Source of the DNA: Nonlabens ulvanivorans
GTDB lineage: Bacteria; Bacteroidota; Bacteroidia; Flavobacteriales; Flavobacteriaceae
DNA: 64,000 nucleotides
Assembly: GCF_000755285.1 (NCBI RefSeq)
Contig: NZ_BBMK01000004.1
Location: 62,001-126,000, forward strand
Reading direction: 5' to 3'
In this document: positions 2,481-63,153 of the stretch, in pieces
How the letters are laid out: each line of letters opens with the position of its first letter
How positions within the stretch are numbered: the first letter of the stretch is position 1
Made by a program: the position numbers and the translations under genes
The notes under the pieces: generated by a model
Seen by the model: the letters and a program-made list of their open reading frames with translations, nothing else
The model's database searches: none
What the model was told of the DNA's origin: nothing

Positions 2481-4026
2481 ATGGCAGAATCTAATTCATC
2501 TCAACAGCCGTTATCTCTAGAAGAGATACAGCAATGTATTGACATCCTTAATAGGTTAAATACTGATACAGATGAGATTTTTGAAATTCCTATGGAAAGA
2601 CGCATCGAGCTTATAAAACAAGCTGGTCTTCTTTCTAGCCTAGTCGTGATGAATATAAAAGACGTAAAAAAGACGCTGTAAAAGCTGCTAAACGTAAAAG
2701 AGCTACTAGAGATAAGCATGCTCGCAAAGAAACAGGAATACGCAGTGCTCGTGAAGCTAGCGTGTTTGTTGCACCACAAATATTACTTCAACAACAGCTT
2801 GAACAACAGGAGCCAGGTGAATTAAGTACACCTAGAAACTGTTACGTCTGTAAAACGATGTTCACAAAACTGCATCATTTTTATGATCAGATGTGCACCG
2901 ATTGTGGTGATTTTAATTACGCAAAACGTTTTCAAACTGCAGATGTTAAAGGTCAGGTTGCCTTAATTACTGGTTCTAGATTAAAAATTGGCTATCATAT
3001 ATCTTTAATGTTATTGCGTGGTGGCGCTACCGTAATTGCAACTACGCGTTTCCCAGCAGATAGTGCTTTACGTTTTTCAAAAGAACCTGATTATAATGAT
3101 TGGGCCCATAATCTCAAGATTCATGGTCTAGATTTAAGGCACATACCTAGTGTAGAAATCTTCTGTAACTTCATAGAACAACGCTATGAAAAATTAGATA
3201 TTCTTATTAATAACGCAGCACAAACAGTACGTAGGCCATCTGGATTTTATGCGCATCTAATGCCTAACGAAAATTTGTCTTACAGTGAGTTACCGCCGTA
3301 TGCTCAAGAATTACTTAAAGATCATCAAGATTGCCTTGCAGAGATTAAAGCACTTTCACCAGCAGCCTCATCAAATAAGAATATGCCAGTTACATGGCAT
3401 GGACCAGAACCAGGAATTGGTTTGAGAGCCAGTGCTCAACTTTCTCAAATACCTTATAGTTTGATAAAGCATTGAGCGCTCCAGAGGTTTTTCCTGAAGG
3501 TGAATTAGATGCAGATTTACAACAGGTAGATTTGAGAAAAACGAATAGTTGGCGCCTTAAATTGGGTGAGATTGAAACTACTGAAATGATTGAAGTACAG
3601 TTAGTGAACTCTGTAGCTCCTTTTGTACTATGCAATCGTCTTTCTGAAATTATGAAGAAAGAAAATACAGGTAAAAAGCATATCATTAATGTAAGCGCCA
3701 TGGAAGGTAAGTTTCATACATTCTTTAAAGAAGATCGTCATCCACATACTAATATGGCCAAAGCTGCCCTTAATATGTTAACACATACAGCAGCTGGCAC
3801 ACTTGCAAAAGATGGTATTTACATGAATGCTGTTGATACTGGATGGGTGACAGATGAAGATCCTGCAGAGCTTTCAAAACGCAAACAAGAATTACATGAC
3901 TTTCAACCACCATTAGATATTGTAGATGGCGCAGCACGAGTTTTAGATCCTTTATTTGACGGTATAAATACTGGAAAGCATTGGTGCGGTAAGTTCTTAA
4001 AAGATTACAGACCTATAAGCTGGTAA
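2481..4026 (+). CDS. SDR-family oxidoreductase with N-terminal Cys4 motif (two frameshifts)
   Basis: Three reading frames join into one protein of about 515 residues. An N-terminal helical, Lys/Arg-rich region leads to a CxxC...CxxC zinc-type motif (CYVCK and CTDCG). A Rossmann core follows, with [18 protein letters not shown] as nucleotide-binding loop, INNAAQ, and [12 protein letters not shown] containing the catalytic-type Lys. One base is missing near 2638: the restored reading passes through [17 protein letters not shown] into the next frame. A second is missing in the T run at 3460-3462: the restored reading gives [12 protein letters not shown]. Both sites look like homopolymer or consensus errors rather than decay, because the frames stay intact and conserved on each side. 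The substrate is unknown. Its stop overlaps the next gene's ATG. Confidence 0.8.
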
Positions 4027-7144: not shown

Positions 7145-9588
7145 ATGAAACTCTCTCTTTCAATACTTTGTTTATTATTTTTTGTTCAAGCAATAGCACA
7201 AGACAAGAAAACTCTTATTATTAAACGAACATCAAATTCTCCTAAAATTGATGGAGATTTAAATGACGCTAGCTGGCGAAATGTGCAAGAGGCGACAGGA
7301 TTTACGCAATTTAGGCCTACACCTGGTGTGCGTGATTCTTTATATAACCGTACTGTTGTTAAAATGACATATGATGATAACGCAATATATGTAGCAGCTT
7401 ATTTATATGATAATCCTAGTTTAATTGCCACCCAATTTTCTAGTAGAGATAATTTTGCCTTTGCAGATTTTTTTGGACTTGTAATCAATCCAAATAATGA
7501 TGCTCAGAACGACACAGAATTTTTTGTGTTTGCCTCAGGTACGCAGGCAGATGCTGTAGCAAATCCTACAGTAGGTGAGGATTTTGGCTGGAATGCGGTA
7601 TGGGATAGCGCTGTACAAATCCAGGTAGATGGATGGTCTTTAGAAATGAAAATTCCATATCGTTGCTTAAGATTTGATAATAAAAATTTAGATACATGGG
7701 GGGGAATACAATTTCATCGTAGGTTCAAAAGAACCGAAGCGCAATATACTTGGAATGAATTAGATGTTACAAAAGGTAACATAGGACTGTATCATGGACA
7801 ATTAAAAGGTTTAAGTGAAATTGATCCGCCAGTAAGGTTAGCTTTTTATCCATTTGTATCTGGTGTAACTCAAAGTTTTGAAGGCAATACAGAAACTAAT
7901 TTTAATGCTGGAATGGATTTAAAGTATGGTATCACAGAAAACTTTACACTTGACGCTACCTTAATTCCAGACTTCAGTCAGGCAGGCTTTGACGATGTAA
8001 GTTTAAATCTAGGTCCGTTTGAGCAAACTTTTTCTGAGCAACGACAATTTTTTACAGAAGGGCTGGACCTTTTCAGTAAAGGAGATTTATTCTTTTCTAG
8101 ACGTGTCGGTAACGCACCAACTGGTGATGTAGATTTATCAAGTGATGAAGAGTTAATTGAATATCCACGCACGAGTAAGGTTTTGAATGCTGTCAAAGTT
8201 TCGGGAAGAACTAAAAAAGGTCTTGGTCTAGGTTTTTTTAATAGTATAACTGAAAAGACGTATGCAACGGTTGAAAATGCTATTACCGGTGATCGTAGGG
8301 AGGAATTAGTTGAGCCTTTTACAAATTACAATATCATAGTTGCTGATCAACAATTTAATAAAAATTCTAGTATAGGAATTATCAATACTAATACGACTAG
8401 AAATGGTGGTTTTAGAGATGCAAATGTTACTGCAGTACTAGCTAATATAATAAACAAGCGCAATACTTATAACTTACAAGGTCAAGTTAAAATGAGTCAT
8501 CTTAACTTAGAAGAAGGCAACAGCACTGGTTACAGCAGTTTTTTAGAGCGCAAACCATTGCTGGAAAACACAGATATAATTTTGACCATACATATATAGA
8601 CACCAAATTTGACATTAATGATTTAGGATTACAATTTAGAAACAATCGCAATGATTTTGGTGTTAATTATTCCTATCGGACTTTTGAACCTACAGGTAAA
8701 TGGAACAATATTTATGTGGGTACTTATGTAGATTACACGCGATTAGCAAATCCTAATGTGTTTACGGGTTTGCGATTAGGTGCTGAATTTTCTGGAAATA
8801 CAACTACCTTAAATAATTATGGGGGGGCTAATGTGAATTTGCAACCAGGCAAACAATATGATTATTTTGAACCACGTAAAGAAGGTGCCTATTTCATAAG
8901 AAAAAATGGTGTGAATATGAATAGCTGGTTCAATTCAAATGATAATAAGAAAATTGCTATAAGCGCATATTTTGGTATAGAGACCTTGCTAGAATCAGGA
9001 CGTGATTATGTGAATTATTGGTTTGGTTTTGGTCCACGTATAAGATTCAATGATAAATTTGTAATCTCTTATTTTATTGACAGAGAATACTATACCGGTG
9101 ATCGAGGTTATGTAACACAAATTAATGATGATGTAATTATGGGAGATCGAAAGCGTATTGAAATTGAGCACACACTTAATGCTAATTTTAATTTTAATCC
9201 ATATCACACTTTATCCTTAACACTTAGAAACTATTGGGGAACAGTTGATTATAATACAAATTTATTTACTCTACAGGACAATGGAAGGGTAAATCCATCA
9301 ATTTATACCGTTAGTAATATACCAGATAATCCTAACATTAACTTTAGTACTTGGAACTTTGATTTGAGTTATTCATGGCAGGTAGCGCCTGGTAGTTTTT
9401 TAACAGCATTATACCGCAATCAACTTTTTAATTTTGATAATGAATCACAGGCCAATTATAATCGAAGTATAGGCAACTTATTAGATCAATCTCTTAATCA
9501 GACGGTTTCTATTAAACTGCAATATTTTATTGATTACAATCGTATTCCAAATATGCTGCGAGGCAAAAATAAAAAACGAGTTATTTAA
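7145..9588 (+). CDS. DUF5916 outer-membrane protein with N-terminal CBM9-like domain (frameshift)
   Basis: Joined across one break, the protein has about 814 residues. A signal peptide (ending QAIAQ) precedes a carbohydrate-binding family 9-like domain (residues 25-210: PKIDGDLNDASW, VKMTYDDNAIYVAAYLYD). The rest is a DUF5916 beta-barrel (TLIPDFSQ...QRQFFTEG, the family's clearest motif). One T is missing in the T6 run at 8539-8544: restoring it gives FFRAQTIAGKHRYNFDHTYID and links the frames. Two G7 tracts (7698-7704 and 8821-8827) each appear to add one Gly, for example TWGGIQF where TWGIQF is usual. The probable role is in outer-membrane handling of glycans or peptides; this is inference. 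Confidence 0.85.
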
Positions 9589-23224: not shown

Positions 23225-23256
23225 AGAGCTTTGGAATTATACATTAACCAAGCTCT
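23225..23256 (-). terminator. Possible terminator overlapping the end of the thioredoxin-fold gene
   Basis: AGAGCTTTGG and CCAAGCTCT form a stem that includes the stop codon region; on the minus strand it ends in TTTTC. Confidence 0.5.
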
Positions 23257-23671
23257 CTACGCATAAACAAACGGTTTTTGGCATTATCTTGAGAACCGAA
23301 GATAGAACGGTAAAGCTCACCGGTTGCAGTGATGAGCAGCCATTGCGGTGTTCCTTCTGCTTTAAACTGGTCATATACCTGATGATGCTGGTCGATGTAA
23401 ATAGGAAATGGGATCTCACCACTGGTAAAAATACTTTTGATGTTCTCTTTTGTGCCTTCGCGATTTGTAAAGTCACTGTGTATCGCTGCGACTTTAATAT
23501 CGGGATATTGTAATTGGAATTCATAGGCGAGTGGTATGGCACGACCAGTACAGCTAGACAGTCATTATTATAAATTAGTAATAGTTGCACTTTACCAGAA
23601 TGCTTTTGTATCAAGTCTACATTCTTTAAATCGAGATCTTTAACGACTATGGATGCGATAGGTGAATTCAT
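23244..23671 (-). CDS. Thioredoxin-fold protein with CxxC motif (frameshift)
   Basis: After adding one base near 23551-23557 the protein has 142 residues. LLLIYNNDCLSCTGRAIPLA carries a CLSC active-site pair after a beta strand, as in thioredoxin or AhpC/TSA-like redoxins. The second half (YPDIKVAAIHSDF, GTPQWLLITATGEL with the cis-Pro-type TP) completes the fold. Without the correction the frame ends in unrelated sequence, so a sequencing error is likely. The role is probably disulfide reduction in the cytoplasm, since no signal peptide is present. The candidate structured RNA lies between this gene and the ThiE-like gene. Confidence 0.75.
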
Positions 23672-25171: not shown

Positions 25172-25573
25172 GGAGTCGGTTTTTATGCAAGTTACTTAAT
25201 TTGATAAAACCACTGTAGAACTACTTGTAAATATTGAGCTTGTTTTAATTTACTCATTTAAAAATTTACAAGCTTAAGTAAAAAACATGAAATTTCTCAT
25301 TGAGGTTGGATCTCTGGCTATTTTAGACCGTTATCGGTAATACTTTCATTATAACTGCACAAGCCGTGGATTATGATGTAATTAAAAATAAGCTTTAATT
25401 GTTCTATAATGTACCGCGTTATGTAACTTGAGTTTTGGTTAAAAGCGAAAGTTGTCACTACAGTTTCTTTAAAAATTTATTCTCAAAAGTTTCTTCTGCG
25501 ATGTTAATGGAACACTCTTTTTACGAAGTGACGATAGGAGAGAAGTGGCAATGTGTGTGGAATGGGTTTTAAA
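25172..25573. other. Gene-free left flank of the accessory island (402 bases)
   Basis: No open frame, repeat, promoter element or tRNA was recognised. I also found no direct repeat shared with the right flank (31315-31715), so no attachment site is evident. Confidence 0.4.
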
Positions 25574-27433
25574 CTAATTAATGTTATTTATCAAAAGTAA
25601 AGTTTCCTTTTTATAATTTGTGGCCAACTCATGAGCTATCCAATTAATTATTCTTTCTATATTATCACTCATAGGCTTATCTGTTGTGTTTTCAAGTTTT
25701 TCTTTCCAAATGTTTAATGATTGTATTAACTTTAGTACAACTGTGTTTTTAGACATTTGTACATCTTCTATTACTTGCTTAAATGTACTAAAATGTAAGC
25801 CCCCCCAAAAAATATAGATATCTTCATCTTTATTTCCGTTAGTTTCTTTAATCGATTTGGTAAATGCGTCGAGTATAGTAGAATTAAATAAATTCTCATA
25901 AAAAACTTCTGCTGATTTTACTGCTATGTTGTTATCAATATTCCATAGTGTTCCTATGTATCCTCTTGCACCTACAGCAATAAAAGAATTTGCTATGTCT
26001 GACCAAGACCAACAAGTATTATTAAAAATCAAAGGAGAATGTGATGCTGCTAAATGATGAAACATTGCCTGATAATTAAAATCAGAACATTTAATTGCAC
26101 ACGAATTTGATATGTTTTTTTTTGGTTTTCTTTCTTGCTTATCAATATTCCACATAGAATTCAGCATATCTGTATACACATATTGAGGGAATTTAACAGC
26201 TTTTAATTCTTTACTTCTCCAAACATAACCATCGAATTTTTTCCAAATATTTTTCGAGGTTACGGGAATTTTTTCTTCTAATTTTGATGGAGCGAAGCTA
26301 ACAACTTCATCATACTCTACAATATGTTCATCTCCATTACTATCAATAAATTTATGCTTAACACTATAACCATCAACTTCACCACCATGACTACATATAT
26401 GCAATAAATTAAAAGGGTATTCTCTTACGTGGTAATTTATATTATGAGATGTTGCATTTTCACCAACTAACTCTTTTACATAATAACTCTTTTTTGTGAG
26501 TTCATCAATTATAAAATTTGTTTCTTCATCTTTAAACTCTAATGGAGAAAAAACTATTGCAGAATATGGAGCTTGAAAAGCCTCAAAATACAAATTATTA
26601 AAAATGAAAAAATCTGGATTTAAATGAAGATGCACATGTGAGAATGGGATAATATTTTTTAGAATAAGTGAATAAGGAGCACCTTCAGTAAAAAAAGTAG
26701 CAAAATCATAATACTCAAACTCTATAGTTTCAATGTTTGGGTAAACAAAAGAACTCAAATCGTAAAAGGATTTTTGATTTCCATTTTTCCATTCATCGAT
26801 AAGAGTTGAAATTTTTCGCTTATCAATTTTTAAAGGATTCGTTAAAAAAATATTAGCGTTAATTGATATCCCATAATTTATTGCAATGACAACTCCAACC
26901 TTATCAACATTCTCAATCACAACAATACCACCATTATTATTCAATTCATGAACAACATCATCAGCATTATCGTCAATATGTAAAATAGAATCACTTGACA
27001 TTGCTTCAACGAGCCCAACATAAATTTGACTTTCCTTACAGCTTAAAGTATTACTCTTTTCAACCATTGAACCCAATATAAAAGTAGCGTCACTAATGTC
27101 ATTAATTTCTATAATATAATAATCTTTTGGAAACTTCAAATAACTGCGTTGGTCTGTTGTTAATCCTATTAATAAGATATTATCACAACCTCTCAATCTT
27201 CTAATAGTATTTCCTATTTTTATGCTTAATTGACGTGCTCTACTTCTTGTTAAATGATGTTCATCAATCGCTGAAACAGATTGATTATTATCAGCTGCTG
27301 TTACAGAAGGAAACTCGAACATTGGAGTGTAAAAACCTTTCTTGTTTGCATAACTTGAAACTATTGCAGATAATATTGGTTCATCAATATTTGCTATGCA
27401 GAAGAAATCTTTATTAAATTCTGGTATTTTCAA
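25574..27433 (-). CDS. CHAT-domain cysteine protease-like protein
   Basis: A 619-residue cytoplasmic protein. Its C-terminal half is a CHAT (caspase-fold) peptidase domain: LLHICSHGGEVDG with catalytic His349, then IFNNTCWSW with catalytic Cys474, then GARGYIGTLWNID and the late WGGLHF motif. Both dyad residues are intact. The N-terminal 330 residues have no family I know. The start is a TTG; no ATG fits. A C7 tract (25800-25806) makes FWGGLHF where one Gly is likely native. The gene is AT-rich, divergent from the NTPase gene 118 bases away, and likely works with it, CHAT as effector and NTPase as sensor or switch. Confidence 0.85.
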   Translation of the reverse strand: MKIPEFNKDFFCIANIDEPILSAIVSSYANKKGFYTPMFEFPSVTAADNNQSVSAIDEHHLTRSRARQLSIKIGNTIRRLRGCDNILLIGLTTDQRSYLKFPKDYYIIEINDISDATFILGSMVEKSNTLSCKESQIYVGLVEAMSSDSILHIDDNADDVVHELNNNGGIVVIENVDKVGVVIAINYGISINANIFLTNPLKIDKRKISTLIDEWKNGNQKSFYDLSSFVYPNIETIEFEYYDFATFFTEGAPYSLILKNIIPFSHVHLHLNPDFFIFNNLYFEAFQAPYSAIVFSPLEFKDEETNFIIDELTKKSYYVKELVGENATSHNINYHVREYPFNLLHICSHGGEVDGYSVKHKFIDSNGDEHIVEYDEVVSFAPSKLEEKIPVTSKNIWKKFDGYVWRSKELKAVKFPQYVYTDMLNSMWNIDKQERKPKKNISNSCAIKCSDFNYQAMFHHLAASHSPLIFNNTCWSWSDIANSFIAVGARGYIGTLWNIDNNIAVKSAEVFYENLFNSTILDAFTKSIKETNGNKDEDIYIFWGGLHFSTFKQVIEDVQMSKNTVVLKLIQSLNIWKEKLENTTDKPMSDNIERIINWIAHELATNYKKETLLLINNIN

Positions 27434-27551
27434 TTCTATATTAGTTTTATTTATAAGAATATAAATGTATTTCTACTTTCATAAATAAGCATTAATAAAA
27501 TTAATAAGAAATCAATTAAAGTAGTATTTTAATTTAAATAATAACAATAAT
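27434..27551. promoter_or_regulatory. Divergent intergenic promoter region of the CHAT/NTPase pair
   Basis: This very AT-rich stretch of 118 bases separates the two divergent starts and must hold both promoters. I see no full TAnnTTTG element, so the pair may use another promoter type or regulator. Confidence 0.4.
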
Positions 27552-30500
27552 ATGTCTGGACGATTACAATTATTAGAACAAAAGCTTTTAGCTATAGATG
27601 GAGCTGGGTTTCAAAATCTTTGTGATACTTACTTGGTTATGAGAGAAAATGAATACTCAAGTTTGAATCGTACAGGAAGTCAATTAGGAAAGTTGAAAAC
27701 AATAATTGGTACACCAGACTCATTTATGAGAATATCTGGTAATAAATTGGCCTACATTGAATATACAACACAAGCGACAGCAATAGTAAAAAAAATAAAA
27801 GAGGATATTGACAAGTGCTTGGATGAATCTAAAACTGGTGTTGAAACAAATGAAGTCCATAAAATAATTGTATGTTTTAATAGTAGACTTAAAGTCTCTG
27901 AAGAGACTTCATTACAAAAGTATGCATCGAAAAAAAAGATAAATCTAGAATTGATAGGTATTGATACTCTTGCTTTAGATATTATGTCTAAATATTATTC
28001 ATTAGCAAGAGATTTTCTTGGAATGTCTTTAGATACTGGGCAAATTCTACCTTTTGATGTTTTTATAGGTGAGTATAACAACAAAGCCAATCAATTATCT
28101 ACACCTTTAGATAATTTGTTTTTTCATAGAAAATTGGAACTTGATAGTATTCAAGCCATATTAAATTCAAAAAATTTATTGATATTATCTGGAGCAGCAG
28201 GAGTTGGTAAAACAAAGATTGGAATAGAAGCCATTAATGTTTTAAAAACGAAAACCCTTCATATATATCTTATGTAATTGCAAAAAAAGATGTTGATATT
28301 TATGAAGATTTAAAAATTCAATTGAAAGAGGATAAAAACTATATACTTTTAATTGATGACGCTAATAGACAATTACCAAACCTATCACAGATTTTTGGTT
28401 TTTTTAGATCAAAAAGAAAAGGAAATTTAAAGTTAATTATAACTGTTAGGAATTATGCTCTATCAGATATTTATAATTTAAGTCACGATTTTGATGTTGA
28501 AACTATAGATATACCGAAGTTTTCTGATGAGGAAATAATAGACATATTAAAAAGTGATTCATTTAAAATTGTAAATAGTAAATATCAAAAAAAGATTGTT
28601 CAAATTGCAGACGGAAATGCACGTCTTGCAATTATGGGAGCTCGTTTAGCTTTAGAAAAAGAAATAGAATTTTTACTTGGAGATGTTGGAGACTTGTTCG
28701 AATCCTATTTTAAAAGCTATGCAATTGATTTTGATTTGTTTTCAAATAAAGACTTATTAAAGTCTTTGGCACTTGTTTCATTTTTCTTCACAATAGATAG
28801 AGAAAACAGAAGTTTTATAAATAAAGTACTATTAGACTTCAATTTGGATTATTATAAATTCAATGAAGCAATTGAGTTATTACACCAAAAGGAGCTTGTA
28901 GAAATTCAATATAATCATGTTCGTATTTCAGAACAAGTAATGGCAACATACTTCTTCTATATAGTTTTCATAAGAGATGGATTATTATCTTTTGAAACTC
29001 TACTATTTAATTATTTTGTAACAGACAAATATCATATTAAGGATAGTATTATACCTGCAAATAATTCGTTTGGTTATGAAAAGGTTTTATCTAAAATTAA
29101 TCCTGTAATAGATAAATATATTGTTATAAATAAAGATGATGATTCAAAATTATTAGAATTTTTAGATGTTTTTTGGTTTTATAAACCAGATGCAACATTA
29201 TCCTTCTTCTTAAATAAAGTAAACTTAATTGAAGAGCCTAAAAACCCTATATACTCTGGATCATATGAAACCAATGATTTCGTTCATAGTAGAGAACAAA
29301 CTTTAGATTATTTATCGCGGTTTTTTAGAAATTATAGCGATTCATTCATACCTTCCATTGAACTCGGATTTGAATACGTCAGGAAGCGACCTGAACATTT
29401 GCCAGAATTTGTAAGAAGAATTAGAGAAACTTTATTGTTTGATGAACCAGATGAAAAATATGCTTACAAGAGGCAATCTACGTTCATAAATTTAATGAAA
29501 GAAAAAATTAAAGAAGGCTTGCATCATTACTCTGTCGCTTTCTTTGAATTAGCTACAACTTTTTTGAAACATTCATTCCAAATTACACATGGTGGAAGAA
29601 AAAATTCAATTACATTTTATGATTATCCAATTACAGATAGTAAAGAGATAAGAGAAATTCGAAAGGATATCTGGGAAACTCTATTTTACTGTTTTAATGG
29701 AAGTAGAGGTGAAGTAGTAACTGTTATAAATGAGTATAAACTTGAATATAGAAATAGGAATCCTAAAATAATTGATTTTGACTTATCAATATTAATTCCA
29801 TTTATTTCAGAACATTTTTCATCAAAATCTTTTAATGAAACTTATGTTGTTAATGATCTTATCAATTCATTAAATCGTGAAAAAGAAATTACAGATTTGT
29901 CTTACCAAAAATTAGAGTCAAAATTCAATACACTTGAATATAGAAACTTTAGAAAAATTGACTGGAATAGATTGAGAGATAGAGATGAATATGACTATAC
30001 AGATTGGAGAAAGTATGAAGAACTCAAAACGGAAAACCTAAAGAAAAATTTTACTTTTTCTAGTAGTGTGAATTTTAATTCATTTTTTGATTCGATTGAA
30101 AATGTTCTAAAAGTTAGTAAGAATAGTAATTCACAAATTGGAAACTCAATTGATATAATTATTTCTGAAAATTTCAATAATAATAATGAAGTAGGATTCA
30201 GTTTGCTTAAGCAGTATTTAGATAAAAACTATGATATAAGAGTCTTATATAAATCCTTGTTTACCATAAATAATGCAACAAAAGAATGGTCCTTATCACT
30301 TTGGGAACTACTTAATGACTGGGAAAATGAAAATAGTATAAGTTGGAAACTAGATTCTTTAGTTAGATTACCGAAAGAACATATTGATAAGTACTATTAT
30401 AATGAAGCTTTGAATACTATAAAAAGTATTACTAAACCAAGCTATTTATATTTAGATCAATTGTCAAAATTTCTTATCATTGATAAGCTTTTTTTAAAGA

Positions 30501-31314
30501 AAGTAATTGATATTATTTCTAATAAAATCGAAAAAGAATCAATTAGAATTATCTTCTCTGACTACCCATTTACAGATAATTTAAATATTTTTAAAGGTGA
30601 TTTTGACCTGATTAAAAAATCATATTTTCAGCAATTTGAGTTTGGGAAATCAGGATCGTCTTTTGATTACCAGAAAAAAGGGTTTAAAAGTATTTATAAT
30701 AAGTATCCAAAATTTCTTTTTGACTTTTTCTCACATTTTTATACCAAATATGATGTTCATAGAGATGTAAAAAATCTTGATATATCATTTATTTGGGATA
30801 ACCCAAAAGACACTATTAATATTGAAAATATAATAAAATTATTAATTGAAAAAGAACAATATATTGGGCTTGGTGAGCATTCTGTATCGGCTTTGTTTCA
30901 TAACTTAAAAAACGATGAGCAAAAGCAAAATGCTCTTGTTTTCATTAAAAGTTATATAGCCAAAAATGCATTGGATAGTGATTCTATTCAAATTATATTT
31001 GACACTGTAAAAGAGTGTTTAATAGAACAGTATGAAGAACTACTTCATCATTTTTTAAATATAAATTCTGGTTTAGATTTCTTTAAAAAAATTGATTGGA
31101 TTGGAAATGCGGGAGTCAAATGGGAGAAGTGATTTGGGGGGGAGAACTTTATGCGAAAAAATGGGGGGGAAACCTTCTCGAAAGCGTCGATAGATTTCAT
31201 AATAAACTTGTTATTATTCCTATCAAAAGCTACATAAAGAGTAAGATACAAGAGCAATATAGAAGTGCAGAATCTGAAAGGATGAGTAAATTTATAATGC
31301 CGAATAGATTCTAA
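27552..31314 (+). CDS. PD-(D/E)XK-like nuclease domain fused to STAND/AAA-type NTPase (two frameshifts)
   Basis: Joined across two breaks, the protein has about 1254 residues. Residues 1-160 resemble a restriction-endonuclease fold: FQNLCDTYLVMR, GTPDSF with Asp56, then YIEYTTQ with Glu70. Residues 214-221 (GAAGVGKT) are Walker A, and residues 264-270 (YILLIDD) are Walker B. IITVRNY follows as a sensor-type strand with Arg. The remaining 900 residues are helix-rich without a known domain, as in sensor regions of STAND defence NTPases. One A is missing in the run at 28244-28248; one G near 31111-31113. The second repair adds 60 residues (VIWGGELYAKKW to the end MPNRF). Two G7 tracts lie in that tail. 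Confidence 0.75.
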
Positions 31315-31715
31315 ACGACCTCATAGAATTTTGGTAAAACAATAGGTGAATGAGCGTACATATTTTAAAGATCTAGCAATTCATATTATCCATATTTTCA
31401 ATGTTTAAGGCTAGCTCAAAGCAATCTTAATCAGTTCCAATGTTTTCTAAAATATAGCGATTGAGCCGTGATTGTTTCCAAAGTTTTGTGCAGCCTTGAT
31501 ACTTCGGCAAGCTCAGCACAGGTTTTTTGTTTTTTTTAATTCAAGTCACTATTTTAAAGAATTTATTATGGAGCATTAATATTCAAAATACCTAAGAATA
31601 TTTTACATAATACTACATTATAGCTATCAAATGGATCAACCGCTCATATAAACTAAACCACACATTTGTTCTATAATTTATATTATGTCAAATAGAATAT
31701 TTATAAACTGTATTA
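31315..31715. other. Gene-free right flank of the island (401 bases)
   Basis: It contains only a REP-like fragment (31496-31521). No coding frame, att-like repeat or tRNA is seen. Confidence 0.4.
31496..31521. repeat. REP-like fragment
   Basis: The core CTTCGGCAAGCTCAGCAC resembles a short extragenic repeat (CTTCGACAAGCTCAGCA) that I recall as scattered in Bacteroidota genomes. Only one copy is in the window. Confidence 0.4.
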
Positions 31716-32444
31716 CTACTCTTTTAATATAGTATCCAATTCTTTTATATGATTATTGATATCAAATTCAAACTGATATAATAAGGATAAATATCCTTGG
31801 TGTGACATAAGCTCCATTTGAGCTACACGATTTTTATAATCATTAGATTTAAAATATGAAAATTCCTCATCCGTTAGATCATATCCTAAAATCAGTTTAT
31901 AATACCAATCTTTATTATTCTTTAAATAATTTAAATTCCCCATAATCTCATCCACCATTTTATCTTCTGATATCTGAAGCATTTCTAGATTGTATTTATA
32001 ATCCGATTCTATAGATTCTAATATTTTTAATACCGGATTATCGATGGCTTTGTTATGACTTAATATTTGAAGTGTTTCATCTTGTTGATTTAAAATAAAT
32101 ACTTGAACTGTTACTAGATAAGGCAATTCTTCATGTAGCGTTTTCATCTCAGCCTGACTAAGTGTACGCTCTGTAAGTAATAAATCAAATAAATCTGACT
32201 GAAATTCTAAGGTATCAATGAACTTTCTAATGTTGGTTTGATCTTTCTTTAATTGTGACATTACTCTCAGTGCAATATCTCTTTATTGTTTAATGGCAGT
32301 TGTTTCTTGATTCCAATTATTAATCCATAAGGCAATTAATATACCTACAACTACCAGTAGGATCTCTCCTATCGCATATAGAGTGTATTTTTTTAATCCA
32401 CTCCATTGGATCTGTTCAAGGCGTTTTTTATTAAAAAGTTTCAT
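31716..32444 (-). CDS. DUF6090 family membrane protein (in-frame stop)
   Basis: Starting at the ATG at 32444, the N-terminus reads YTLYAIGEILLVVVGILIALWINNWNQE, the membrane helix diagnostic of DUF6090 (part shown). The frame then meets a TAA at 32283-32285, after AIKQ, and continues without shift as RDIALRVMSQLKKDQTN. The full product would be 242 residues. A single base change from CAA or GAA explains the stop. It may be a real nonsense mutation or a sequence error. The C-terminal region is helical with no known function. It follows the DUF4251 gene on the same strand at close spacing. Confidence 0.7.
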
Positions 32445-40388: not shown

Positions 40389-42271
40389 ATGAGATTAATC
40401 ATAACCACTATACTGATAATTTTATGCTCTACAAGCTTTGTTGGAGCACAAAATTTAAGCTTAAAAAAGACCAATAGGCTTTTCAAAAATCAAGCTTATA
40501 AAGAAGCAATTGAAAACTATAAAAACCTCAAACAAACGGAAGAAGTTCTCAAAAAATTAGGTGATTGTTATTACTACACTGGTGATATGGCACAGGCTGC
40601 TTTCACCTACTCTTCTATTGAAGATAATAATGGACAAATAACAGATTACAATAGAATCTATCGATATGCTCAATCTCTTCTAGCTCTTAAAGATTATGAT
40701 AAAGCAGATAGTTATTTACTCTATTATCAAGGAAAAGATTGGGATACAAAAGAGTTTTTAAAAGAATTAGAGAAAAGTACACCGCATAATTTTACTGTAG
40801 CTCCTATACGTAATGAAGGATCTAACAGCGATTTTGGTATGAGTTTCTTAAACGATACTGAAGTGGTTTTTGCCTCTTCGCGCAATATGGAAAGACCTGT
40901 ATATGCATGGAATGGATTACCATATCTGGATTTGTATAAAGCCACTTTAGAAAGAGATGGAGCCCTTAAATCTATTCTATCATTCTCCAGTATCAATACA
41001 GACTTACATGAGAGCAATGCCGTATTTACTGAAAATGGTACTGTAATGTACTTCAATAGAAATAACGCTGAACGTGTTAAAATTAATGACATACCAGTTT
41101 CTAATATGAAAATCTATAAGGCAGAATTAGTAGATGGTATCTGGACCAATGTACAAGCTCTTTCCTTTAATGATGATATGTATAGCGTTCAACATCCAGC
41201 GATTAGTAAAGATGGTTCTACCTTATATTTTTCAAGTGATATGCCTGGTGGATATGGTGAATTTGACTTATATAAAGTCAGTGTCAATAGTGATGGAACA
41301 TATGGTGAACCAGTAAACTTGGGTAAAGAAATCAATACGCAACATCTTGATCAATTTCCTTATATCAGTGATATTAACACCTTGTATTATTCTACTAATG
41401 GTAAACAAGGTGTCGGTGGATTAGATATACATAGAAGTGATATGGTAAACGGCGAATTTACCACACCTATCAATTTGGGAACCACTATTAATAGTTCGAG
41501 AGATGATTTTGCATTTATCATAAATGAAAATCTTAATAAAGCATATTTCTCGTCTAACAGAACTGGTATTGATAAATTATACAGAACAACAAGAGAAGAA
41601 AATGTTCTTACTAAATATGCGGTAAAAGGTGTCGTTAAAGACAGTATTTCTAATAAATTATTGTCAGGATCATTGGTATCATTACTTGACGAACGCGAAA
41701 TTTTAATTGATGATATGATTGTAGGTGAAGACGCTACCTACTTCTTTAAATTAGAGCCTAATAGAAAATACACAATAAGAGGAACACGTAAATTATACAT
41801 ACCTCAAGATGTTCAATTTTCAACAGATAGAAATGGCCGCATAAGCCATGATATTTTCTTAACACTACTTTCTTATCAAGATGCTGAGGCTACAATTAAA
41901 CCAGATCGTAAAGGCGATGTGCAAGTAGAACTAGACCAGATATTCTTTGATTTTGATGAGGCGATTATCAAGCCTGAAGCTGCACATACTCTAGATGAGT
42001 TAGTAGATATCATGAAAAAATATCCAGCAATGTATATTGAAGTATCTGCCATACAGATGTGCGCGGACCTAGCATCTACAACCTTGAATTATCTAAAAAA
42101 CGTGCTGCATCAACGCTCGAATACTTGGTAAGCAAAGGTGTAGAAAGACGTAGACTTAGAAGTATAGGTTATGGAGAAATGCAACCTCTTAATAATTGCA
42201 TCCAAGAAGGTATTTGTACTGATAAAGAATATGAGATCAATAGACGATGTGAGTTTAAAATTGTTCAGTAA
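40389..42271 (+). CDS. OmpA-family protein with PD40 beta-propeller repeats (frameshift)
   Basis: The 627-residue reconstruction has a signal peptide (SFVGAQ), TPR-like repeats (residues 25-130: YKEAIENYKNLK, LGDCYYYTGDMAQAAFTYS), then PD40-type strands (DGSTLYFSSDMPGGYGEFDLYK), and a carboxypeptidase-like domain. It ends in a C-terminal OmpA peptidoglycan-binding domain. One C is missing at 42049-42050: the correct frame reads VSAHTDVRGPSIYNLELSKKRA, the OmpA core motif, and runs to 42271. This architecture matches T9SS/gliding accessory proteins such as PorE. It anchors the outer-membrane machinery to peptidoglycan. It is the third gene of the adhesin-SprF operon. Confidence 0.88.
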
Positions 42272-42387: not shown

Positions 42388-44255
42388 TTATCTCTTTAAA
42401 GTAACGTGTCCCGTTAGAACCTGATTGTTATAGTGTAGTTTGTACCAGTAATCACTGCTAGGTAAAGGTTGATTATCATACAATCCATCCCAACCTACTA
42501 CAAGATTGTTAATTTGCTTAAGTAGTTTTCCATGTCGATCATAAATCTCTAATCGTGCACCTGGAAAAGCATCGATATTATAAATATCCCACGTATCGTG
42601 ATAACCATCATTATTAGGTGTGAAAAATCGAGGGATTTTTATGCGATTATAAGTATAGAAAGTGACCTCACAACCAGTTCGATCTTTTACTCTTACTATG
42701 ACTTGTAATAAATTATTAATATTAAAAACAGGACTATTGTAATAGTTTAAACCATCGATACTGTATTGAAAATCACCCGTGTTTTCCGTGATAATTGTGA
42801 GTTCATCATTATTAACTTCAACACCAACTATAATAGGTATTTCAATAAATTCTACTTGAAATATGGCGGTGCTAGTGCATCCTTCTAGGTTAGTTACTTC
42901 GCATGTATAAGTACCAGCAGTGTTTACACTAATACTATCTGTAGTCTCGCCACTACTCCATCGATAAAAACCATTTGTAAACTGAGTATTTAATAATGCC
43001 ATCTCTCCAGGACATAATTGAAAGTCTTCACTATTAACCACTGGTGAAGAACGATTTACAAAATTTATGGGTACTCTAGAATCACTAATACAACCAGTAT
43101 CAATATCTTCTGTTTCAACCAGTAAGTGCCATCGACTTGCGTGGTATAGTCAATAGAATCATCATGTATAGAACTACCACCAGTCGGGCTCTCATACCAG
43201 TATGCAGTTGTACCTGGAGAAACATCTACTATTAGATCAACCAGTTCGCCATCACAAGATATATATGGATTTTGTCTAGGAACGGCTAGCGGAACTACAA
43301 CATTTCTAAATTCAAAAATTTGTGAAAAGGAATAACAACTAGAATTAGAAAGGTTTGCAAGTGCGCCAGCTATTCTAACTCTATAATAAGTAGTAGAGTT
43401 TAATGGTGGTGTTGTTAAAGAAAAACTGTTCTCACCTGATATATCTGTAAAATTACTTCCATCAGTACTTTGCTGCCATTGATATGCTGTTAAAGAAGGA
43501 GCACCGCTTTGTACGGTTGCATTAAGCTGTATGCTTTGTGCTGGATCGTTTTCACATTTTGTTACTACCGTTTCACCAGCAATCGTAGCTATGAGAACAT
43601 CATCGCCACATACATTGAAACTAATATCGTCAATCGCTAGATCATTTCCACAGCCACCAGCACCGACATTAATCATTTTAAGGATAATACCATTCTGACC
43701 AGCACTTGTGGTAAATGTTAAGCCATATTTAATCCATGTAGGTCGTTGATCTGCAAATTTAGGGTTCATGGTGCCATTTGCCAGTAAAGTGGTGTCTGTG
43801 GCATCCCATATTTCAAAACGCACTTGTATCGGTATTTCTGTAGAACCACACACATTTTGTACTCCATCGAGCACATTCATGATCCACGCACTAAATTCAT
43901 AAGGTGTGTTTTCACACAAACCGTTGATAGGCGTTCTATAAAACTGACCAGCATTAAATCCGGCATTAACAATGAGCATCTTACCATTATTATTACCCGT
44001 ATGGTCTGGAAAAGAAAACCAGCTACCTAACTGTCCAGAATCTCTAGAAATGGTGTATTCGCCATCTTGCGGTGCAGCATTTACATATTGATATGAAGTC
44101 ACTGCATTAGAAAGTGCTGGACCATTATTTGTGCCTGACCCAAAATCTTCTGTAAAAATGGCTGGTCCTAAAATTCCATCACAGAATTGTAATTGCGCTT
44201 TCGCGGAAGCGTAACACAAAAACACCAGTAAAATTAAAATAATCCTATTAATCAT
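42388..44255 (-). CDS. T9SS-exported protein with type B sorting domain (frameshift)
   Basis: The 622-residue reconstruction has a signal peptide (ASAKAQ), a jelly-roll-like domain (residues 25-210) and Ig-like modules with paired Cys. It ends in a C-terminal gliding-type sorting domain (FFTPNNDGYHDTWDIYNIDA). One base is missing near 43117: the restored frame reads YWLVETEDIDTGCISDSRV and joins both parts. The signal peptide coding sequence contains a palindrome copy (44196-44211). It is a cell-surface or secreted protein exported by T9SS. The substrate of its binding modules is unknown. It converges on the T9SS operon. Confidence 0.88.
44196..44211. repeat. TTTCGCGAAA palindrome copy inside a signal peptide
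   Basis: CGCTTTCGCGGAAGCG differs at one base from the consensus. It lies within codons for YASAKAQ of the T9SS-cargo gene. Confidence 0.85.
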
Positions 44256-48968: not shown

Positions 48969-48979
48969 TATTTTACAGT

Positions 48980-49423
48980 TTACTCAGACGTTATGATCAT
49001 ACCACTCACCCAACCTTCGGCGATTTTTTGTTCGTTTTCATCAATCATTTTCACCACACATTTTAATTTTCCAAATCTGAAATATTCTTTTCTAGCACTA
49101 ACAATAACTGCTGTTCCTGGTTTAACGATTGAATTAAATACTACATGACTTTCAGTAAAAACAAAATTCAAAGATTCTTTTTCATCTTTATTTAAATAAG
49201 TTCCTAGACAAGCAAGCCCTATTTGTGCCATGCATTCAATAAGAATTACTCCTGGAGTTACTGGATTATGTAAAAAATGATGCTTGTAAAAATATTCGCT
49301 TTCGCGAAAGCGGTATACACCTATCACATGGTTATCATCCATTTCTAAGATATGATCCACAAATTTGAATCCATCTCCATAGGGTAAATTAGCTATTATT
49401 TTTTCAAACGGATCTAAAAGCAA
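48980..49423 (-). CDS. 3-hydroxyacyl-ACP dehydratase (FabZ-like hotdog)
   Basis: A 147-residue hotdog protein: LPYGDGFKFVDHILEMDDNHVIGVYRF and HFLHNPVTPGVILIECMAQIGL, in which the H-x8-G-x-(M/I)-x2-E signature of FabZ lies (part shown). It removes water from 3-hydroxyacyl-ACP. A perfect copy of the 16-base palindrome (49297-49312) sits in the coding sequence at GVYRFRESEY. The gene lies between the KAS and SDR genes. It would act in the chain-building half of the cluster. Confidence 0.85.
   Translation of the reverse strand: MLLDPFEKIIANLPYGDGFKFVDHILEMDDNHVIGVYRFRESEYFYKHHFLHNPVTPGVILIECMAQIGLACLGTYLNKDEKESLNFVFTESHVVFNSIVKPGTAVIVSARKEYFRFGKLKCVVKMIDENEQKIAEGWVSGMIITSE
49297..49312. repeat. 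Perfect CGCTTTCGCGAAAGCG palindrome inside a CDS
   Basis: A 16-base perfect copy in the dehydratase gene, encoding YRFRES on the minus strand. Confidence 0.95.
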
Positions 49424-52001: not shown

Positions 52002-53111
52002 GGCTGTATCTCTTTACCGTGTGTTTTTTAATAATAATAGGTAATAGAAATGGTAAACGCTCTAATAACCAATAAGCTATTGCTGTTAAGTTTTATGTAA
52101 TAATATCTTTTGCAACCATCTACCATAGCGCAATCTAGATGAAAATGTCTTTCTCCAGTTTGTAGAATAGTTAATTAACATTTGATCTTGTGTAATGTGA
52201 TTGTGCAAGTATTGGGTTACATAGTTAGATGCCATTTGAGCACTGTGAATGGCCATAGCCATACCATTTCCACATAAAGGATGAATTAATCCTGCGGTAT
52301 CACCTATCATCAATAACTTACCTTCAACTGGTTCTTTTTGTTCAAATGAAATCTGGGAGATACTAATAGGCTTTTCCCATACTGGTATAGCATTCTTAAA
52401 AAATTCTTTTAAAGCTCTATTTTGTGTTAATACCTTATTATTAAAAGTAGGGATGTCTTTATAATCCTTAAAGGACTTATAATTTACTAGATAGCAAAGA
52501 TTTACATTACCGTTCTCTACTTTAGACAATCCAGCATATCCACCTTTATAAGCATGTAACTCTACTAGGTCATTAGGCATATCAAACTTATAATGCATTT
52601 TTACAGCAAGCCATGGAGATTTTTTCTGAATAAAAGGTCTGGCAAATTTTTTATCAAGCAATGATCTTTTACCTGTAGCGATGATGACTTGTTTTGCAAA
52701 TAATACATGATTACTTGTTATTACTTTAAAATGATTGTCAATTAAAGTAACATCAAAAACCCGATCGAGAAGAAAATCTGCTTTTTCTCTAGCCTTATTA
52801 TATAATTCTAAATCTAGAGAATATCTAGAAATACCTATGCCTCCTAAAGGCAAGGTTGCTGTTTTAATAGATCGCGATCCACGTGTAAAACTAAAATTAT
52901 CAATTTCAACATCTGACAGATCATTTACATTGATGCCTAACGATTTTAAATATAGATTTACCTCCATACTTAAATACTCTCCACACATTTTATGACGTGG
53001 ATATGTATCTGGATCGATAACTAATACATTAAAATGTTGAGATAGTTGTATAGCGGCCGTTAGTCCGGCAAGACCACCACCAGCAATAATGACATCAAAG
53101 TTCTTCTTCAC
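51998..53111 (-). CDS. FAD-dependent oxidoreductase, geranylgeranyl reductase/UbiH-like (two frameshifts at end)
   Basis: Starts at GTG 53111. The N-terminus has the FAD motif DVIIAGGGLAGLTAAIQL and PRHKMCGEYLS, and later GDTAGLIHPLCGNGMAMAIHSA (part), as in flavoprotein monooxygenases and geranylgeranyl reductase-type enzymes. The frame stops at 52086, but adding one A at 52091-52094 and one at 52024-52029 extends it by 30 residues. The extension reads NLTAIAYWLLERLPFLLP, then IIIKKTHGKEIQP and a TGA that overlaps the methyltransferase ATG as ATGA. That overlap is strong support. The product has about 371 residues. It probably oxidises or reduces the PKS product. Confidence 0.85.
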
Positions 53112-53450: not shown

Positions 53451-55453
53451 TTAATAATCTAACAATTCTTTTACACAAACTTTAAGTCGACTTGTTGGTA
53501 AGTAGTTATTTTCCAATCCTTTTTCAAATGGTATAGGCGTATCTAAGCTTCCAACACGTCTCACAGGAGCATCTAAATATTCAAAACATTCTTCTCCTAT
53601 AAATCCAGCAATGTCGGCTGCTACACTACCGGTAAGGTTATCTTCAGTTAATACAATTACCTTACCCGTTTTATGAACTGATGCTATAATAGATTCTTTA
53701 TCTAGAGGTGCTAAAGTTCTTAAATCTATTAAATCTATATCATACTGCATTTCGTCGATTAATTTCTTTGCCCAGTGAACACCAGCACCATAAGTAATTA
53801 TCGTTAGCTCATTTCCTTCGTGAACTGTAGCCGCTTTCCCTAATGGCAAATTATAATATCCTTGAGGAACATCTCCATAAACACTACGATATAAAGCTTT
53901 GTGCTCAAAGAATAATACCGGATTAGGTTCTTCTATTGATGCTGTTAAAAGTCCTTTTGCGTCTGCAGGAAAAGCAGGATAAACAATCTTAAGACCTGGA
54001 ATGGTATAAAACCATGATTCATTAGATTGTGAATGGAATGGACCTGCTCCTACACCAGCACCACATGGCATTCTTATCACGATATCTGCCTTTTGATTCC
54101 ATCTATAATATGATTTTGCCAGATAATTGACGATGGGATTAAAGCCACTACTTACAAAATCTGCAAATTGCATTTCTACAATAGCTTTCATACCTGCGAT
54201 ACTTAGACCCATCGCAGCTTCTACGATTGCGCTTTCACATATTGGTGTGTTGCGCACACGATCACGGCCAAATTTTTCTACAAAGCCATCTGTAATTTTA
54301 AATACACCACCATACTCGGCAACATCTTGTCCCATGATTACTAAGTTATCATAGCGATCCATGGACTCTTCAAGGCCATCCTTTATAGCATCAACTAATC
54401 TTATGTTTGTAATATCATCGCTAGCGATTTCATTTATATGATCATGTGGCGCAAACACATCTGCTAGTTCTATTCGTGATGTTGATTGAGGTAACGCTTT
54501 CGCGAAAGCGATATCTAAACCATCATTAATTTCTTCTTTATAATGTGTACTCCACTTTTCTATGTCTTCAATAGAGATCAAATCTTGATTTAATAAATAC
54601 TGTTCAAAACGAGTTAAGGGATCACGCTGTTCCCAATAGTTCAATAGTTCATCAGGCACATATTTTGTACCACTAGCCTCTTCATGTCCTCGTCTTCTAA
54701 AGGTTTTAAACTCTATAAGAACTGGTTTAGGGTTTTCACGTATATCATTAAGTATTGAAGATATTTTTGTGTAAACTTCTACAATATTATTACCGTCAAT
54801 AATATGAGATTCCATTCCGTATCCTAGGGCACGATCTGCGAGATTTTCGCAATTGTATTGCTCACTAGTTGGGGGGGTGCTTAATCCATATCCATTATTT
54901 TCTATACAAAATAAAACGGGCAAACTCCATACACTAGCAACATTTAAGGCTTCATGGAAATCGCCTTCGCTTGTACCACCTTCACCAGTAAAAACAGCGG
55001 TTGCAAGACCTGTTTTTTTAGTTTTTGAGCTAGAGCAATACCATCTGCAACACCTAGTTGTGGTCCCAGATGAGAAATCATTCCTACTATATTATAATCT
55101 TGGGTGCCAAAATGAAAACTACGGTCTCTACCTTTAGTAAAACCTTCTTCTTTACCTTGCCACTGTGCAAACAGCTTCCATAATGGTATATCACGAGTTG
55201 TAAAAACTCCTAGATTACGGTGCATAGGTAAAATATACTCGTCGCTTTGCATAGCCATCGTTACACCTATTGCGATAGCTTCCTGTCCTATACCAGAAAA
55301 CCATTTTGAGATCCTTCCCTGACGCAGCAGTATAAGCATCTTCTCCTCTATTAATCGAGGTAATAACATTCTTTTATACAGTTCTATTAAGGTATCTGTG
55401 TCAAGATTATTTTTATATAAATCTGTAAATTTTAGTGGACTAGTTTCTGTCAT
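53451..55453 (-). CDS. 2-oxoacid dehydrogenase E1, fused alpha and beta subunits (frameshift)
   Basis: The reconstruction has 667 residues. The alpha part (residues 1-330) has the thiamine diphosphate region and GEGGTSEGDFHEALNVASVW, IENNGYGLST and FRRRGHEEASG. The beta part (residues 340-667) has DVAEYGGVFKITDGF, NTPICESAIVEAAMGLSIAG and MPCGAGVGAGPFHSQSNE. The product is a fused branched-chain or pyruvate-type E1. One A is missing in the run complementary to T7 at 55013-55019; restoring it gives LKKTGLATAVFTGEGG. The G7 tract at 54871-54877 gives STPPTSEQ where STPTSEQ is usual. A palindrome copy lies at 54495-54510 in the coding sequence. Confidence 0.9.
54495..54510. repeat. Perfect CGCTTTCGCGAAAGCG palindrome inside a CDS
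   Basis: A 16-base perfect copy within the E1 gene, in the linker region between alpha and beta parts (encoding AFAKAL). Confidence 0.95.
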
Positions 55454-62548: not shown

Positions 62549-63153
62549 ATGGCAGAAATTTTAACCGCTATATTTTTCTTATTTGCAGTAATAGATCCTA
62601 TAGGTACTGTACCTGTTTATTTAGAAGCTACTAAAGAATTTGATAAACTTCATAAACGCAAAGTGGCCATAAGAGCGTCTGTTGTAGCATTTTTGATATT
62701 GCTATTTTTTATAGTTATAGGTCAAATCATTCTAGAAGGAATGGAAATAACGCTAGATGCTTTTCAAATATCTGGTGGTGTTATTTTATTTCTATTTGCA
62801 CTTACGATGATATTTGGTGGTGGAAAACCTGAGGATGAAAAAAGCCATATCTCTGACTATAAACATGTTACCATTTTTCCGGTTGCGATTCCATCTATTG
62901 CCTCACCAGGTGCAATTCTAGCAGTTGTACTTCTTACTGATAATCATATCTATCTATAGAGCAACAAGCGTTTACTACTCTATTGGTACTTTTAGTAATA
63001 GGTATAACGTGCGTCACTTTATTACTTGCAAATAATATTCAAAAAGCAATAGGTAGTTATGGTATTACCGTAATTAGTAAGGTTATGGGATTAATACTAG
63101 CTGCTTATGCAGTACAAAGTATATTATCTGGTATTGCAGACTATTTTAAGTAA
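62549..63153 (+). CDS. MarC-family membrane protein (frameshift)
   Basis: The reconstruction has 201 residues, the usual length for MarC. It starts EILTAIFFLFAVIDPIGTVPVYLEA, the family's signature (part shown), and has six hydrophobic helices. One T is missing near 62950-62956: the restored frame reads DNHIYSIEQQAFTTLLVL and ends GIADYFK at 63153. The role is unknown in spite of the name (it is not a drug pump). Its stop overlaps the next ATG (TAATG). Confidence 0.85.

What the first reader, a model, noticed from the sequence alone, without database searches (positions are those of the whole stretch)
27552..31314. The NTPase gene is one 1254-residue protein split by two single-base losses
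The first 241 codons end at a stop right after Walker A, but adding one A in the run at 28244-28248 joins Walker A to Walker B (YILLIDD) through SYISYVIAKKDVDIYEDL. Adding one G near 31111-31113 extends the C-terminus by about 60 residues to MPNRF. Automatic annotation would show three fragments and miss the Walker A/B pairing and the complete architecture.
Basis: seen in the sequence. Interest (0 to 1): 0.55.

Follow-up and report, generated by a model that had tools for sequence, protein, structure and literature searches.

The report
Intact immune gene split by sequencing errors
A large immunity-type ATPase gene looks broken into three pieces most likely because this genome assembly is full of small base-count errors; close relatives carry the same gene in one piece, so the break itself is ordinary noise.

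Summary
Walker A and Walker B lie in different frames, and a third frame encodes the C-terminus. Homologues are continuous across both joints, the nearest being Lacinutrix sp. C3R15 (97.9% DNA identity, 1252 aa). The breaks are almost certainly consensus errors: in the same 200 kb, 44 of 169 conserved genes are broken, including the only hisS found, against 0 of 60 in a relative-to-relative control. G7 runs number 565, against 0 to 7 in each of 22 congeners. dN/dS against Lacinutrix is 0.15. No reads were available. The continuous protein is an nSTAND3 NTPase with an N-terminal alpha/beta domain and a long C-terminal region; the first-ranked structural matches are the phage-defence proteins Avs4 and Avs5. 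With a divergent CHAT-domain gene it forms a 6.1-kb cassette shared with two other genera. The split is uninteresting; the cassette is a modest lead.

The parts
27552..28277 (+). Fragment 1 of the NTPase gene (241 aa): predicted N-terminal alpha/beta domain (about residues 1-156) and Walker A
   Evidence: structure model of the Lacinutrix homologue; alignments
28191..28214 (+). Walker A, GAAGVGKT (residues 214-221)
   Evidence: sequence; G214, G217, G219, K220 invariant in 16 homologues
28239..28243 (+). First joint: T-run one base shorter than in the Lacinutrix, Gillisia and Aquaticitalea homologues
28250..31132 (+). Fragment 2 (second frame): rest of the nSTAND3 domain, a winged-helix-like segment (by inspection of the model), long C-terminal region
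28340..28360 (+). Walker B, YILLIDD
   Evidence: D269, D270 invariant in 16 homologues
31112..31117 (+). Second joint: one T fewer than in the Lacinutrix, Gillisia and Aquaticitalea homologues
31118..31314 (+). Fragment 3 (third frame): C-terminal ~65 residues ending MPNRF
   Evidence: same ending in L005, L006, L008
31136..31142 (+). G7 run where L005, L006, L007 and L008 have G4 (probable consensus artefact, adds one Gly)
31163..31169 (+). G7 run where Lacinutrix has G4 (probable consensus artefact, adds one Gly)
25574..27433 (-). Divergent neighbour: CHAT-domain protein, 619 aa, frame intact; one His and one Cys expected of the dyad (recalled) conserved
25800..25806 (-). C7 run in the CHAT gene where Lacinutrix has C4 (same artefact)
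25397..31500 (.). 6.1-kb two-gene cassette shared with Lacinutrix (95.7%) and Aquaticitalea (83.9%), alignments ending at nearly the same places
31716..32444 (-). Next gene downstream, also broken in this assembly by a stop (242 aa in G016, here 181 + 53 aa)

Best explanation
The gene is a single NTPase gene of about 1252 codons, and its two frameshifts and two in-frame GGG surpluses are errors of an error-rich consensus assembly, not biology (as far as sequence alone can show; the confidence given is for this part). The protein is an nSTAND3 STAND ATPase with an N-terminal alpha/beta domain and a long C-terminal region. Most likely mechanism (inferred, about even odds): the C-terminal region senses a phage product, ATP binding in the nSTAND3 module drives oligomerisation, and the N-terminal domain, possibly a divergent nuclease, is switched on to stop the infection, in the manner of Avs4/Avs5. 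In this lineage a divergently transcribed CHAT-type protein, probably a protease, is carried with it and may be a second effector or regulator (inferred).
For: Continuous open frames across both joints in Lacinutrix C3R15 (97.9% DNA), Aquaticitalea (85.7%) and Salegentibacter (61%), and one open frame in each of the 8 other carriers among 397 family genomes. In the same 200 kb of this genome 44 of 169 G016 genes found there carry a frame change (37) or only stops (7), while G016 genes found in G011 gave 0 of 60. Ten of the broken genes were looked up; they include PriA, ClpB and hisS, and hisS, in three pieces, has no other copy in the assembly. The shift rate of 0.29 per kb predicts 1.09 shifts in a 3.76-kb gene; two or more has P = 0.30. 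G7 runs: 565 here, 0-7 in each of 22 congeners, with G4 at 11 per 100 kb against 34 and 31. dN/dS against Lacinutrix is 0.15. nSTAND3 is matched by 16 of 16 aligned homologues. Foldseek ranks Avs4 first (E 9.1e-13) and EfAvs5 third (6.1e-9); VIA ranks EfAvs5 first (Z 15.2, rmsd 8.1, 304 residues, model 161-520).
Against: No reads were seen; a real, very recent double mutation would look the same. The homologue in Gillisia marina (L008) is also broken, though by other single-base indels. Among distant carriers one is half-length (L051, 627 aa) and one is a degraded piece with stops (G596), so real loss does occur in the family. In the reverse test 14 of 184 G000 ORFs showed a shift or stop in G016 and 1 of 66 in G011. 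Counting all aligned DNA, clean-flank single-base indels are 0.75 and 0.53 per kb for G000 against G016 and G011, and 0.35 per kb (14 in 40 kb) between G011 and G016 themselves, so over all DNA the excess is modest. The assembly is 86.9% complete, so a second hisS could be missing. For the function: no activity was tested; PADLOC matches nothing for the Lacinutrix protein at E<=1, and its commonest match among the 16 homologues is mad8 (10 of 16, best E 6.4e-7), not an Avs model. The Foldseek superpositions are loose (TM 0.35 and 0.32 by query length), and in VIA clamp loaders, Cdc6/Orc1 and NLRs are tied with EfAvs5 within 1.
Confidence: 0.93

Rival explanations
1. A real, recent pseudogene: both deletions occurred in the organism and the gene is dead.
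For: Immunity genes are often lost (general knowledge); a degraded relative (G596) and a half-length one (L051) exist, and the Gillisia copy is broken too.
Against: Breaks occur at a similar density in unrelated conserved genes, including the only hisS found. dN/dS of 0.15 shows no relaxed selection, although a very recent loss would leave no trace. The G7 runs next to the second break are part of a genome-wide pattern.
Confidence: 0.04
2. Programmed -1 frameshifting at the first joint: the window reads T TTA AAA, a slippery heptamer, with a possible hairpin 9 nt downstream, so the ribosome could make both a short and a long product.
For: The heptamer lies in frame at 28241-28247; the 83 nt from 28248 fold somewhat better than shuffles (z -2.15, 5 of 200 shuffles as good).
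Against: The four close homologues have no frame change at this place; three of them have the longer T-run. The downstream sequence is nearly the same in Lacinutrix, so the hairpin is not tied to a shift. By inspection the open overlap at the second joint (31096-31132) holds no slippery heptamer. The genome is full of other shifts.
Confidence: 0.02
3. Three genuine separate genes (a split NTPase working as a complex of fragments).
For: Each fragment is an open frame.
Against: The first cut runs through the nucleotide-binding fold between Walker A and Walker B; the homologues seen in one open frame are not split, and the Gillisia copy, though broken, has no break at these two places.
Confidence: 0.01

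Closest known systems
nSTAND3 STAND NTPases (Pfam PF20720), incl. Avs5 (AVAST type 5; SIR2-nSTAND3-repeats)
   Same: nSTAND3 passes the Pfam cut-off in the Lacinutrix homologue and is matched in 16 of 16; the model matches EfAvs5 and an AVAST5 filament. PMC12931631 (passages read) describes Avs5 with a SIR2-like effector domain, nSTAND3 (PF20720) and C-terminal repeats.
   Different: The N-terminal domain is an alpha/beta domain with invariant GTPD and near-invariant E and T; SIR2 was not matched. About 1250 aa; divergent CHAT neighbour in three lineages.
Avs4 (AVAST type 4, PDB 8dgf)
   Same: First-ranked Foldseek match of the N-terminal 520 residues (E 9.1e-13).
   Different: Loose superposition (TM 0.35 by query, rmsd 22) at 14% identity; no PADLOC match for the Lacinutrix protein at E<=1; no lysine at E+2 of the conserved glutamate.
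CHAT-domain peptidases (PF12770)
   Same: The neighbour scores 25.9 bits against a cut-off of 24; a His and a Cys in SHGG-like and N-x-C-W motifs are conserved in all six sequences seen.
   Different: Only a short stretch of the model matches (positions 214-256 of 289); no other Pfam family reaches its cut-off; the structure model failed (mean pLDDT 30).
Gene-fragmenting errors of long-read assemblies
   Same: 44 of 169 genes broken here; PMC12007338 (abstract and section list seen) reports pseudogene rates of 23.3% before and 5.6% after correction in its example long-read assemblies.
   Different: The sequencing technology of this genome is unknown to me; the G4-to-G7 signature is specific and one search brought no description of it.

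Membership tests
nSTAND3 NTPase (PF20720) | Pfam gathering score of 27.2 bits | tested here: met
   Continuous Lacinutrix homologue 35.7 bits, L003 40.8. The window's fragments alone: 16.9 bits and no hit.
nSTAND3 NTPase (PF20720) | Walker A and Walker B in one polypeptide | tested here: met
   Met in the continuous homologues; G217, G219, K220 and D269, D270 invariant in 16. In the window as printed they lie in two frames.
AVAST/Avs defence systems | Match to a PADLOC Avs model | tested here: not met
   Lacinutrix protein 0 families at E<=1; 1 of 16 homologues reaches an Avs2 model at E 2.1e-4, while 10 of 16 match mad8.
AVAST/Avs defence systems | Effector-STAND-sensor fold arrangement | tested here: inconclusive
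   Foldseek ranks Avs4 first and EfAvs5 third, but superpositions are loose, VIA rows cover mainly residues 161-520 and tie with other AAA/STAND folds; residues 521-1252 were not modelled.
AVAST/Avs defence systems | Phage protein recognition and abortive activity | not testable with these tools
   Needs experiment.
PD-(D/E)XK nucleases | alpha/beta core with D and E-x-K (recalled motif) | tested here: inconclusive
   Model order H-H-E-E-H-H-E-H-E-H-H in residues 2-156, with 35-55 below pLDDT 50; GTPD invariant, E70 in 15 of 16, but no lysine at E+2. No sequence match of note for this domain in Pfam or PDB.
CHAT peptidases (PF12770) | Pfam gathering score of 24 bits | tested here: met
   Window 25.9, Lacinutrix 24.1 bits, both just above the cut-off.
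CHAT peptidases (PF12770) | Catalytic His and Cys (recalled) | tested here: inconclusive
   H349 and C474 conserved in 3 of 3 and in the three distant relatives by inspection; no structure to place them.
Pseudogene | Relaxed selection, or disruptions beyond the local error rate | tested here: not met
   dN/dS 0.15; two shifts against 1.09 expected locally, P = 0.30. A very recent loss is not excluded.

The most novel reading that the evidence does not exclude
The 6.1-kb cassette is an undescribed two-gene immune system: an nSTAND3 sensor with its own N-terminal effector domain that on activation also switches on a divergently encoded CHAT (caspase-like) protease, a bacterial parallel to the apoptosome-caspase pair. 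It passes as a unit between flavobacterial genera, while each gene also occurs without the other elsewhere.
Probability: 0.2. Interest if true: 0.55.

Novelty: new member of a known kind. Interest (0 to 1): 0.22.

Why it matters
It shows that split genes in this genome should be checked against relatives before being called pseudogenes: about a quarter of the conserved genes compared in 200 kb are broken, and an in-frame GGG surplus recurs at G4 runs across the genome, adding false residues to proteins. It also recovers a complete nSTAND3 protein and an NTPase-CHAT pair that annotation of the fragments would miss.

Tried and rejected
Pfam, PADLOC and NCBIfam on the NTPase fragments gave only sub-threshold hits. 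Sequence profiles against the PDB gave nothing informative. AlphaFold of the CHAT protein from three close sequences failed (mean pLDDT 30) and was not used. The N-terminal domain alone has no Pfam relative of note, and VIA listed no row centred on it, which excludes nothing. Literature searches for an nSTAND/CHAT pair (12, 12, 4 and 0 papers listed) and passages of PMC8195603 brought no description of this pair; that is not proof of absence from print. One search for a known G-run consensus artefact (one paper listed) brought nothing specific. PMC9712102 was opened (abstract and section list) and is about CapRel, not relevant.

I considered that G016 itself might be the faulty reference: the 0 of 60 control against G011 argues against it. 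I considered that hisS might have a second intact copy: none was found in the assembly.

Full report
What was claimed.

What is in the sequence. ORF 27552-28277 (241 aa) carries Walker A (GAAGVGKT, 28191-28214) and stops 20 codons later. A second frame, open to a stop at 31132, continues with ENPSYISYVIAKKDVDIYEDL and holds Walker B (YILLIDD, 28340-28360). A third frame ends at 31314 in MPNRF. The window is positions 62001-126000 of contig C22 of a 3.09-Mb, 25-contig genome with 86.9% completeness. Genome G404, listed as of the same family as the window's, contains exactly the gene of Lacinutrix sp. C3R15; Lacinutrix is a Flavobacteriaceae genus, so the host is very probably of that family.

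The test. A scan of public genomes found four close loci: Lacinutrix C3R15 (L006), Aquaticitalea lipolytica (L005), Salegentibacter sp. 24 (L007) and Gillisia marina (L008). L005, L006 and L007 are continuous, with 1252 aa in L005 and L006. L008 is itself broken by other single-base indels, mostly in A-runs. DNA identity of the gene to the window is 97.9, 92.1, 85.7 and 61.3% for L006, L008, L005 and L007. In a search of 397 family genomes, 9 carry the gene including this one, and the other 8 have one open frame of 1238-1261 codons stop to stop. Among 99 relatives it is in 3, the other two continuous. Among 395 genomes of the phylum it is in 7: four with one long frame (1233-1261), one half-length (627 aa), one degraded piece with stops, and the window. 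These sets overlap: one search includes G049 and the same genomes as L005 and L006.

What exactly differs. Against L006 the window has four length differences within the gene: minus one T in the run at 28240-28243; minus one T beside 31116; and plus GGG at 31136 and at 31163.

Error or biology. I compared 200 kb of the same contig with the related genome G016 (320 kb fetched) and with G011 (80 kb fetched), using ATG ORFs of at least 100 aa matched at over 60% identity and at least 60% coverage. Of 169 G016 genes found in G000, 44 (26%) have a frame change (37) or only stops (7) there; of 60 G016 genes found in G011, none has. In the reverse direction 14 of 184 G000 ORFs show a shift or stop in G016, and 1 of 66 in G011. 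Ten of the 44 were looked up; they include PriA, ClpB and histidine--tRNA ligase above their cut-offs, and three had no family at E<=1e-30. The only hisS found in the assembly lies in three pieces, a loss that would be expected to be lethal if real. The local rate, 46 shifts in 158 kb of coding sequence, predicts 1.09 shifts in a gene of 3.76 kb; two or more has P = 0.30. The gene is thus not broken more than its surroundings. Over all aligned DNA the excess of single-base indels is smaller: 0.75 and 0.53 per kb for G000 against G016 and G011, and 0.35 per kb between G011 and G016. PMC12007338 (abstract) reports 23.3% pseudogenes before correction in its example long-read assemblies, a similar figure; the technology behind this genome is unknown to me.

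The G7 signature. In 200 kb the genome has 29 runs of exactly seven G or C, while 320 kb of G016 and 80 kb of G011 have none; runs of four are at 11 per 100 kb against 34 and 31. In the alignment to G016, 20 of these runs appear with clean flanks as insertions of exactly three bases, turning four into seven. In the whole genome there are 565, against 0 to 7 in each of 22 congeners. A/T runs show no such shift. I read this as a systematic fault of the consensus. The two surpluses in the gene, and a third at 25800 in the neighbour, are examples of it.

Not decaying. Window against L006: dS 0.069, dN 0.010, ratio 0.15; polarised codon changes are 13 synonymous and 6 replacement on the window side, 9 and 3 on the Lacinutrix side. 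A very recent loss would leave no trace here, so this excludes only an old pseudogene.

Recoding considered. The shortened run creates an in-frame T TTA AAA and a modest hairpin follows (z -2.15). The close homologues have no frame change here, and by inspection the open overlap at the second joint holds no such site, so programmed frameshifting is unlikely.

What the protein is. The continuous Lacinutrix protein passes the Pfam nSTAND3 cut-off (35.7 against 27.2 bits), and 16 of 16 aligned homologues match nSTAND3; 12 also match NB-ARC weakly. A model of residues 1-520 of the Lacinutrix protein (mean pLDDT 76, five sequences) has Avs4 as first-ranked Foldseek match (E 9.1e-13) and EfAvs5 as third (6.1e-9), with loose superposition (TM 0.35 and 0.32 by query length). 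VIA gives Z 15.2, rmsd 8.1 over 304 residues to EfAvs5, with NLRs, clamp loaders and Cdc6/Orc1 tied within 1, so this shows a STAND/AAA fold rather than a specific membership. Residues 2-156 form an alpha/beta domain (weak at 35-55) with invariant GTPD, a glutamate in 15 of 16, and invariant K81, D85, C89. That is compatible with a PD-(D/E)XK-like fold, but the usual E-x-K lysine (recalled) is absent and no sequence family matched. Residues 521-1252 were not modelled. PADLOC has no match to the Lacinutrix protein at E<=1; among the 16 homologues its commonest match is mad8 (10 of 16), with Avs2 in one.

Neighbourhood. A CHAT-domain gene lies divergently at 25574-27433 (25.9 bits against 24). 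The stretch 25397-31500 aligns end to end to Lacinutrix (95.7%) and Aquaticitalea (83.9%), while Gillisia shares only 27527-31480. In family searches of 397 genomes each (apparently the same draw) the NTPase occurs in 9 and the CHAT protein in 6, with 3 genomes in common, where the two are adjacent. CHAT relatives in G038, G396 and G175 stand beside other genes. In G011 and G016 the same flanks, with two small flanking genes in swapped order, enclose different genes between about 25.2 and 31.6 kb of the window, so the place looks like an insertion hotspot. In Aquaticitalea the cassette lies beside relatives of three of the genes that occupy this place in G016 (enoyl-CoA-hydratase-like, 320-aa, SDR-like; names by inspection).

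Verdict. The breaks are most likely assembly errors of a kind shared by a quarter of the conserved genes compared around it. The gene is a new member of the nSTAND3 STAND family, probably a phage-defence protein by analogy (inferred), and the NTPase-CHAT cassette is the only part that deserves a further look.

Noticed in passing
whole genome G000; in the window at 7698, 8821, 15289, 17977, 19753, 25800, 31136, 31163, 33769, 45629, 45873, 53411, 54871, 60518: Apparent conversion of about half of the G4/C4 runs into G7/C7 (565 in the genome, against 0-7 in each of 22 congeners), adding three bases in frame.
   Followed up: yes
window 2481-4023, 7145-8955, 23253-23671, 31719-32444, 40389-42268, 42391-44255, 48977-49423, 52024-52988, 53454-55453, 62549-63150: Other conserved genes in the window also show a frame change or stop against G016 (coordinates converted).
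   Followed up: partly
window about 25200-31600: Likely insertion hotspot: between similar flanks G011 carries a 1264-aa protein with an N-terminal SEC-C-like motif and other genes, and G016 carries metabolic-looking genes (names by inspection).
   Followed up: partly
L063 5049-12198 (G038): A relative of the CHAT protein (49%) is followed by an 849-aa HSP90/sacsin-like ATPase and a Schlafen-AlbA-like protein, next to a VirD4/TraG-like gene (names by inspection); CHAT seems to be paired with different partners.
   Followed up: partly
L055 1787-5503; L056 4998-8720: Two IMG/VR contigs encode relatives of the NTPase in frames of 1239 and 1241 aa (36% over nearly the whole length, 27% over residues 8-764), so mobile elements may carry it.
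   Followed up: no
L008 5302-9063: The Gillisia marina homologue is broken by other single-base indels, mostly in A-runs, perhaps another draft-quality problem.
   Followed up: partly
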